Assembly: GCA_947447115.1 (NCBI GenBank)
Contig: CANFKD010000006.1
Location: 1 to 44,527, forward strand
DNA: 44,527 bases
Direction of reading: 5' to 3'
DNA from: Caulobacteraceae bacterium
GTDB taxonomy: Bacteria; Pseudomonadota; Alphaproteobacteria; Caulobacterales; Caulobacteraceae
The translations under genes were made by a program, and so were the position numbers. Positions 718 to 2,093 of this stretch are shown piece by piece. Numbering within the stretch: position 1 is the first letter of the stretch; each line of letters begins with the position of its first letter. The notes beneath the pieces were generated by a model. The model saw nothing but the letters and a program-made list of their open reading frames with translations, did not search any database and had not been told where the DNA came from.

Positions 718-750
718 TCACGCCCCTATCGATAATTTTATTTTTAACGA

Positions 751-815
751 CCTTGACGAGATTATGAAGAGGGTCTTCTCTTACTCAGGCGGAGTAGGGG
801 AGGCTTTCGTGTCGA
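751..815 (+). promoter_or_regulatory. Leader repeat copy 1 with a Shine-Dalgarno hairpin
   Basis: This 65-nt stretch aligns without gaps to 1616-1680 with 54 of 65 identical bases, and both copies end at the GTG start of a paralogous gene. The SD core GGAGG lies at 799-803, five bases before GTG 809. Bases 778-786 can pair with 792-800 in a nine-pair stem with two G-U pairs and loop AGGCG, so the 5' half of the SD would sit in the stem. TTGACG at 754-759 resembles a -35 element, but no convincing -10 follows. Regulation by this hairpin is inference. Confidence 0.55.
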
Positions 816-1207
816 TCGTGGGCTTGTTTCATCAAAAGGTTTCTCCGCGACTATGGCCGATTGGCATGGTCGTTTGGACCCTTGCAGCAATTATAATATG
901 TGCTTTTGATGAAAAATCGTTCGGCGTCGGAACATTTATTTTAATAACCAACACTAATTTAGGTTTTATCTCACTCTATAATGATCTAAATATACAAAAA
1001 AAGTTGTTAAATCATAATATAAGCATGCATATCGGGGTCATGTTATTATTATTGATGATTTTTATAAGATTTAGATCATCTGTTTTTGTACCATTTATTT
1101 ATCAATTATCCGTTTTTTTAATAAATTTTGCTTTTTGTTTAATTTATATAATTTTAGTCAGCGTAAAAGATTCGCGCGCCGAGGTTGTTAAAACCAATGA
1201 CAAATGA
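809..1207 (+). CDS. Small AT-rich membrane protein, paralogue A (132 aa, unknown function)
   Basis: I do not recognise a named family. The protein has hydrophobic stretches consistent with about four membrane helices: around WPIGMVVWTLAAIIICAF, a short one near VGTFILITNTNLGFISLY, then HIGVMLLLLMIFIRF and FLINFAFCLIYIILV. It has a short charged C-terminus. Start GTG 809 is chosen because it follows GGAGG by five bases and matches the start of the paralogue at 1674; the frame stays open further upstream without a better start. The N-terminal half aligns with paralogue B (WPIGMVVW with LPGLIIWS; FGVGTFIL with LGVATYVL). Base composition differs sharply from its neighbours: bases 961-1020 hold only 12 G or C of 60. 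The stop overlaps the next gene by 11 bases, suggesting translational coupling. Horizontal origin is likely; the function is unknown. Confidence 0.62.
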   Translation: MSIVGLFHQKVSPRLWPIGMVVWTLAAIIICAFDEKSFGVGTFILITNTNLGFISLYNDLNIQKKLLNHNISMHIGVMLLLLMIFIRFRSSVFVPFIYQLSVFLINFAFCLIYIILVSVKDSRAEVVKTNDK

Positions 1208-1451
1208 TAAACCAAGGCCTTTAGTTTTCTGGATTTTGATTACGTTATGGTCAGTATTTGCAATTTTTCTAGCCGGAAAGAATGTTTATACGTTAATAAA
1301 ATTAGAATCAGAAATTATTTCGGTTGGTAGTGCATTTCCGGATAAACAAGTTGGAAAAATATATCCTATCGTAATTAAAGTTAATGGCTACCCTCGCAGT
1401 TTTTATGTTGATAAAAATTATTATATGAGACGAAAAAAGCAATTTATATAG
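1197..1451 (+). CDS. Small membrane protein, 84 aa in the 0 frame, probably frameshifted
   Basis: An ATG at 1197 overlaps the end of paralogue A by 11 bases; GAGG at 1181-1184 is a distant SD candidate, and a TTG at 1185 is an alternative start. The protein has one N-terminal membrane helix (LVFWILITLWSVFAIFLAG) and then a polar region ending in VNGYPRSFYVDKNYYMRRKK. The reading frame stops three codons after the heptamer A AAA AAG at 1433-1439, read exactly as cgA AAA AAG. The -1 frame after that heptamer stays open to 1600 and codes for a second membrane helix, so the gene is probably meant to be about 134 aa. The product family is not recognised. The break could be programmed frameshifting, a homopolymer indel or a sequencing error. 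Confidence 0.5.
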   Translation: MTNDKPRPLVFWILITLWSVFAIFLAGKNVYTLIKLESEIISVGSAFPDKQVGKIYPIVIKVNGYPRSFYVDKNYYMRRKKQFI

Positions 1452-1600
1452 TAACTGCAAAGCATGTATTATACATTTTATTAAACTTGATCATTTATTG
1501 CGCGCTAAGAGATAAATTCTTCCCTGTTATTCTATTAGCTAAATCAAAGAAATTTGACATATTGGAGTATTTGAGCAGACCTTTGTTACCTAAAATATAA
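1433..1600 (+). other. A AAA AAG slippery heptamer and open -1 frame extension
   Basis: From the heptamer at 1433-1439 the -1 frame codes for 53 further residues from GCA 1439 to the TAA at 1598-1600. It begins AIYIVTAKHVLYILLNLIIY, which reads as a membrane helix, and ends in a basic tail LSRPLLPKI. Joined to the 0 frame it makes a 134-aa protein, close to the 132 and 139 aa of the flanking paralogues. The phase is canonical for -1 slippage as in dnaX. A weak inverted repeat (ATGTAT T ATACAT, 1464-1476) lies downstream but starts rather far away for a stimulator. No strong upstream SD-like stimulator is seen. Confidence 0.5.
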
Positions 1601-1615
1601 TTAAATTTTTCACCA

Positions 1616-1680
1616 TCTTGACGGGATTTAAAAAGAGGTCTTCCCTCACTCAGGCTGAGTAGGGGAGGCTTTCGTGTCGA
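1616..1680 (+). promoter_or_regulatory. Leader repeat copy 2 with a Shine-Dalgarno hairpin
   Basis: This is the second copy of the leader at 751-815, again ending at a GTG start (1674) with GGAGG at 1664-1668. Bases 1643-1651 can pair with 1657-1665, with one C-A mismatch and loop AGGCU. At DNA level ACTCAGGCTGAGT (1648-1660) is a perfect palindrome around a central G, so the element could equally be a protein operator. Of the two stem differences from copy 1, one keeps pairing (U-G to C-G) and one breaks it (U-A to C-A). Confidence 0.55.
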
Positions 1681-2093
1681 GCATCAATGGGTTGTCGAAA
1701 AATGTCTATTCAAAGCTATTTTTGCCAGGATTAATCATCTGGTCTATAATCGCGGTGGGTGTTAGTAATTTTGATCGGGTTCAGCTTGGCGTTGCTACGT
1801 ATGTTTTATTGAATAATTATTATCTGTACAAATTTATTAATAACAAAAAAACAACTACTGTTTCGAGTTTAAAATCATTAATAGACATAATGTCTGGGTC
1901 ATTTTTATTGATATTTTTGATATTTATGAAATTTGGGATGTTAATTTTCATAGATTTCAAATTTCAACTATTGATTTTTATATTTGAATTTTTCGTCTAT
2001 TTATTATTCATACACGTTATTGAATATGATGAAAAGACCGCCCCCGAAGGGGTAGAGAATGACGATCGTAAGAAAAATATTGATAATATTTAG
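1674..2093 (+). CDS. Small AT-rich membrane protein, paralogue B (139 aa, unknown function)
   Basis: This is a paralogue of the protein at 809-1207. It shares the start context (GGAGG then GTG), similar length, and the N-terminal pattern of hydrophobic helix, Phe-Asp, then LGVATYVLLNN. The helices are around LFLPGLIIWSIIAVGV, GVATYVLLNNYYLY, SGSFLLIFLIFMKFGMLIF and FQLLIFIFEFFVYLLFIHVI. A charged C-terminal tail rich in Glu, Asp, Lys and Asn follows, longer than in paralogue A. Composition is strongly AT-rich until the stop; the GC-rich host pattern resumes right after 2093. No known domain is recognised. Possible roles include a membrane effector or immunity-type protein, but nothing in the sequence proves this. 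Confidence 0.62.
   Translation: MSSINGLSKNVYSKLFLPGLIIWSIIAVGVSNFDRVQLGVATYVLLNNYYLYKFINNKKTTTVSSLKSLIDIMSGSFLLIFLIFMKFGMLIFIDFKFQLLIFIFEFFVYLLFIHVIEYDEKTAPEGVENDDRKKNIDNI

What the first reader, a model, noticed from the sequence alone, without database searches (positions are those of the whole stretch)
1433..1600. Possible programmed -1 frameshift at A AAA AAG, or a recent frameshift mutation
The 0 frame reads cgA AAA AAG and stops three codons later, while the -1 frame stays open for 53 codons and encodes a second membrane helix. The fused 134-aa length matches the flanking paralogues (132 and 139 aa). The phase is exactly that used in dnaX and IS3-type elements. Weak points: there is no strong stimulatory structure or SD-like element, and a 6-A run is a typical indel or sequencing-error site.
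Basis: partly seen in the sequence, partly recalled or inferred. Interest (0 to 1): 0.72.

Follow-up and report, generated by a model that had tools for sequence, protein, structure and literature searches.

The report
Broken or ordinary small membrane gene
A six-A run near the end of a small, relative-less membrane gene looks like a ribosomal frameshift signal, but the evidence points to a one-base slip in a fast-changing, poorly conserved stretch of DNA, or to a chance open frame, rather than a programmed shift.

Summary
A AAA AAG lies at 1433-1439 in the dnaX/IS3 phase. The 0 frame (ORF2, 1197-1451, 84 aa) stops at TAG 1449, and the -1 frame is open from 1415 to 1597. One detail fails: ORF2 is not a detectable paralogue of its neighbours, although ORF1 and ORF3 are paralogues of each other.

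Programmed frameshifting is not supported:
- The genome encodes tRNA-Lys(CUU) as well as (UUU), so AAG should hold its tRNA.
- Its dnaX is one 680-codon frame without the heptamer.
- There is no downstream structure (z +1.2) and no upstream Shine-Dalgarno element.
- No homologue was found in the family and order genomes searched or in the viral, plasmid, phage and GTDB collections, so conservation cannot be shown.

The island (27% GC against about 60% in the flanks) evolves almost without constraint. ORF3 against its only orthologue (G001) has dN/dS 0.88, while flanking genes score 0-0.05. That orthologue itself carries a one-base shift in a T run.

Best reading: a one-base indel in the A run of a decaying or dispensable orphan gene. 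Two rivals remain open: a sequencing error, and an 84-aa gene whose extension is chance (P about 0.02). Raw reads would settle the first. Interest is low.

The parts
732..815 (+). Leader repeat, copy 1: hairpin whose 3' arm holds the SD (GGGGAGG), directly before the GTG start of ORF1
   Evidence: 82% identical to 1597-1680; folds at -21.8 kcal/mol, z -2.9; homologous leaders in G001, G002, G003
809..1207 (+). ORF1, 132 aa multi-span membrane protein without Pfam family, paralogue of ORF3
1197..1451 (+). ORF2, 84 aa in the 0 frame, one membrane span; start overlaps the end of ORF1
   Evidence: no relatives
1433..1439 (+). A AAA AAG heptamer in -1 frameshift phase; six-A run
1415..1600 (+). Open -1 frame (stop TAA 1598-1600), possible former 3' part of ORF2
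   Evidence: P of chance about 0.02
1597..1680 (+). Leader repeat, copy 2, before ORF3; overlaps the end of the -1 frame by a few bases
1674..2093 (+). ORF3, 139 aa membrane protein; orthologue in G001 (L013:501-909) carries a one-base shift at a T run

Best explanation
ORF2 and the open -1 frame are the two pieces of a formerly continuous gene of about 134 codons, broken by a one-base indel in the A run at 1433-1438 (inferred). The gene sits in an AT-rich, lineage-specific island of small membrane-protein genes between an enoyl-CoA hydratase gene and a thioesterase gene (shown). The island is under little or no purifying selection (shown for ORF3, inferred for ORF2), so such an indel can persist. 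Translation would end at TAG 1449 and give an 84-aa single-span protein. Any -1 product would be residual slippage, not a regulated output.
For: The two frames abut at a homopolymer, and the -1 frame has no usable start before TTG 1487. ORF3 against the G001 orthologue has dN/dS 0.88 (bootstrap 0.46-1.99), while the flanking thioesterase gives 0.05 and the enoyl-CoA hydratase 0 in the same pair of genomes. The G001 orthologue has itself lost one base at a T run and needs a -1 shift. ORF2 is absent from the other six genomes of the genus. Structure, SD and tRNA features needed for efficient shifting are missing.
Against: No intact homologue of ORF2 exists in any collection searched, so the former continuity is not demonstrated. 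The openness of the extension is only about 1 in 50 by chance. The near-neutral rate was measured on ORF3, with wide limits, not on ORF2. Sequencing or assembly error in this draft genome (169 contigs) cannot be told apart from a real mutation here.
Confidence: 0.45

Rival explanations
1. ORF2 is a complete 84-aa single-span protein gene, translationally coupled to ORF1, and the -1 open frame is a chance reading of AT-rich noncoding DNA.
For: Chance openness P about 0.02, a third of such frames helix-like, and antisense frames of 60 and 62 codons in the same island. ORF2 is not related to the 132- and 139-aa neighbours, so no length is expected of it.
Against: The open frame begins just before the heptamer and runs to the next leader repeat, filling the gap between the two units; without it about 145 bases of spacer have no stated role.
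Confidence: 0.28
2. Sequencing or assembly error: the true run has another length and the gene is intact.
For: Draft genome in 169 contigs. Homopolymer site. The G001 draft shows a similar one-base shift at a T run.
Against: A six-A run is a low-error context for short reads (general knowledge), but the sequencing method is unknown. Near-neutral rates in the island fit real mutation as well.
Confidence: 0.15
3. Programmed -1 ribosomal frameshifting at A AAA AAG, giving an 84-aa and a 134-aa product.
For: Heptamer, phase, and an open -1 frame of fitting length. The heptamer is among the most efficient in E. coli when stimulators are present (PMC4066793).
Against: tRNA-Lys(CUU) and (UUU) are both encoded, and the CUU gene is found in six of seven genomes of the genus. 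A second lysine tRNA is expected to pair tightly with AAG and dissociate poorly (PMC5009743). No downstream structure (z +1.2) and no SD-like element (best duplex -2.7 kcal/mol). dnaX of this genome has no A run above 4 and a single frame. Conservation cannot be tested.
Confidence: 0.08
4. Phase-variable switching or transcriptional slippage at the A run.
For: Homopolymer at the junction of two frames.
Against: Six A is shorter than the A runs of seven at 996 and 1845 in the neighbouring ORF1 and ORF3, which stay intact. No population data.
Confidence: 0.04

Closest known systems
dnaX -1 frameshift of Escherichia coli (A AAA AAG)
   Same: Identical heptamer in the same phase, with a -1 shift needed
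   Different: No upstream SD and no downstream hairpin here. Two lysine tRNAs instead of one. In dnaX the shifted product is the short one; here it would be the long one.
IS3-family transposase frameshift (A AAA AAG with stem-loop or pseudoknot)
   Same: Heptamer and -1 direction, shifted product longer
   Different: No transposase, no structure, no IS in the island, no conservation
Orphan 'singleton' frameshifted genes of the GeneTack survey (PMC3711429)
   Same: Split orphan gene without homologues. The survey ascribes orphan singletons to gene overlaps (about a third) and otherwise to sequencing errors or indels.
   Different: No substantial difference; this is the class it fits best

Membership tests
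Programmed -1 ribosomal frameshift cassette (dnaX/IS3 kind) | Slippery heptamer X XXY YYZ in phase | tested here: met
   AAAAAAG 1433-1439, phase correct
Programmed -1 ribosomal frameshift cassette (dnaX/IS3 kind) | Downstream stimulatory structure | tested here: not met
   MFE -6.3 against shuffled -9.1 +/- 2.3, z +1.2
Programmed -1 ribosomal frameshift cassette (dnaX/IS3 kind) | Upstream SD-like element | tested here: not met
   ATAAAAATTATTATATGAGACG, best duplex -2.7 kcal/mol
Programmed -1 ribosomal frameshift cassette (dnaX/IS3 kind) | A single tRNA-Lys reading AAA and AAG, as in E. coli | tested here: not met
   tRNA-Lys CTT (L067) and TTT (L069) both present
Programmed -1 ribosomal frameshift cassette (dnaX/IS3 kind) | Conservation of heptamer and both frames in homologues | tested here: inconclusive
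   No homologue of ORF2 in any collection searched
Pseudogene / gene under relaxed selection | dN/dS near 1 in the element while neighbours are constrained | tested here: inconclusive
   Met for the neighbouring ORF3: 0.88 (0.46-1.99) against 0.05 and 0 in the flanks. ORF2 itself has no homologue to compare.
Pseudogene / gene under relaxed selection | Other disruptions in the same element or its relatives | tested here: met
   One-base shift in the G001 orthologue of ORF3

The most novel reading that the evidence does not exclude
A working -1 frameshift without stimulators, in a lineage with two lysine tRNAs, that makes a one-span and a two-span form of an orphan membrane protein.
Probability: 0.05. 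Interest if true: 0.5.

Novelty: new member of a known kind. Interest (0 to 1): 0.15.

Why it matters
It shows that a textbook slippery heptamer in AT-rich accessory DNA is a weak predictor of programmed frameshifting. The lysine tRNA set and the selection on neighbouring genes are quick checks. If the shift were real it would question the expectation that A AAA AAG works well only where one lysine tRNA reads both codons.

Tried and rejected
- Homologues of the fused ORF2: 390 family genomes, 398 order genomes (overlapping sets), GTDB contigs, viral contigs, plasmids, phages, Pfam, PHROGs, NCBIfam and PADLOC gave nothing convincing.
- Rfam on the island gave one chance miRNA match only.
- ORF3 in GTDB contigs and the ORF1/ORF3 alignment in viral contigs: nothing. 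In the family only G001 is a real match; the others have E 0.05-0.09.
- Paralogy of ORF2 with ORF1 or ORF3: rejected.
- Internal reinitiation in the -1 frame: the first start is TTG 1487, well past the 0-frame stop, so considered unlikely.
- Codon-position GC of the extension did not discriminate between readings.
- A pattern scan for the tRNA-Lys anticodon loop was unspecific and was replaced by Rfam plus ARAGORN.

Full report
What is there. The window belongs to a draft genome of 2.5 Mb in 169 contigs. Between an enoyl-CoA hydratase gene (1-717, Pfam ECH_1) and a thioesterase gene (2299-2805, 4HBT) lies an AT-rich island, 25-29% GC in its core against about 60% in the flanks. It holds three small ORFs: ORF1 809-1207 (132 aa), ORF2 1197-1451 (84 aa) and ORF3 1674-2093 (139 aa). 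The heptamer A AAA AAG is at 1433-1439 in ORF2, in the phase of dnaX. The 0 frame stops at 1449, and the -1 frame is open from 1415 to 1597.

Paralogy. ORF1 and ORF3 are clearly related (score 154 against 36 +/- 7 in shuffles; 27% identity). ORF2, read as the fused product, is not detectably related to either. The argument from the length of 'flanking paralogues' therefore loses most of its weight.

Chance. In random DNA with the island's composition, 53 codons stay open with P about 0.02, and a third of those contain a helix-like 19-mer. Two antisense frames of 60 and 62 codons are open in the same island. The heptamer in phase within 85 codons has P about 0.024. The two features are suggestive together but not strong, as the site was picked out by reading.

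Against programmed frameshifting. (1) The genome encodes tRNA-Lys(CUU) and tRNA-Lys(UUU). A 97-100% identical CUU gene is found in six of the seven genomes of the genus; the seventh is only 63% complete. In E. coli the site is highly shift-prone because the sole tRNA-Lys pairs relatively weakly with the second codon, and with two lysine tRNAs one is expected to pair tightly with AAG and dissociate poorly (PMC5009743). (2) The dnaX gene of this genome lies in one 680-codon frame without an A run longer than four. (3) The 71 bases downstream fold worse than shuffles (z +1.2), and no SD-like element precedes the site. (4) No homologue of ORF2 was found anywhere, so conservation, the main criterion of surveys (PMC3711429), cannot be met.

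For decay or dispensability. The only relative of the neighbouring genes is in G001, a genome of the same genus, where ORF3 alone is present. That orthologue has lost one base at a T run and needs a -1 shift. Leaving the gap aside, dN/dS is 0.88 (0.46-1.99), while the flanking thioesterase and enoyl-CoA hydratase give 0.05 and 0 between the same two genomes. Thus the island appears to evolve with little constraint, and homopolymer indels are expected in it. Errors in either draft cannot be excluded, and the rate was not measured on ORF2 itself.

History of the locus. Each of ORF1 and ORF3 is preceded by an 84-base leader (732-815 and 1597-1680; 82% identical) that folds into a strong hairpin holding the SD in its 3' arm (-22 kcal/mol, z -2.7 to -2.9). 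The leader also follows the enoyl-CoA hydratase gene in G001, G002 and G003. In G002 and G003 it heads a different, GC-rich gene. In G005 the interval holds a phosphotransferase-like gene instead (my reading of the sequence, not tested against a family library), whose ends are still recognisable at about 2130-2280 of the window; in G006 and G004 it holds other genes. The G001 leader resembles copy 1 in its 5' part and copy 2 at the loop, as expected if ORF1-ORF2 was lost (or gained) by recombination between leaders. The locus is a site of gene turnover, which fits a dispensable ORF2.

Verdict. A one-base indel in a dispensable orphan gene is the best single explanation (0.45), followed by a chance open frame behind a complete 84-aa gene (0.28), sequencing error (0.15) and programmed frameshifting (0.08). 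The first three make the finding ordinary.

Noticed in passing
732-815 and 1597-1680; L013:424-507; L011:1501-1584; L012:1371-1450: An 84-base leader with a strong hairpin that sequesters the SD just before GTG/ATG, found in four of seven genomes of the genus directly after the enoyl-CoA hydratase gene but heading different genes. It may control translation of whatever gene sits there. Pairs show no double compensatory change, so structure-level selection is not proven.
   Followed up: partly
720-2300; G005 L021: The interval between the enoyl-CoA hydratase and thioesterase genes is a turnover site: AT-rich small membrane ORFs, a peptidase-like gene, or a phosphotransferase-like gene in different species; remnants of the last at about 2130-2280.
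   Followed up: partly
L013:501-909: The G001 orthologue of ORF3 is split by a one-base loss at a run of seven T.
   Followed up: yes
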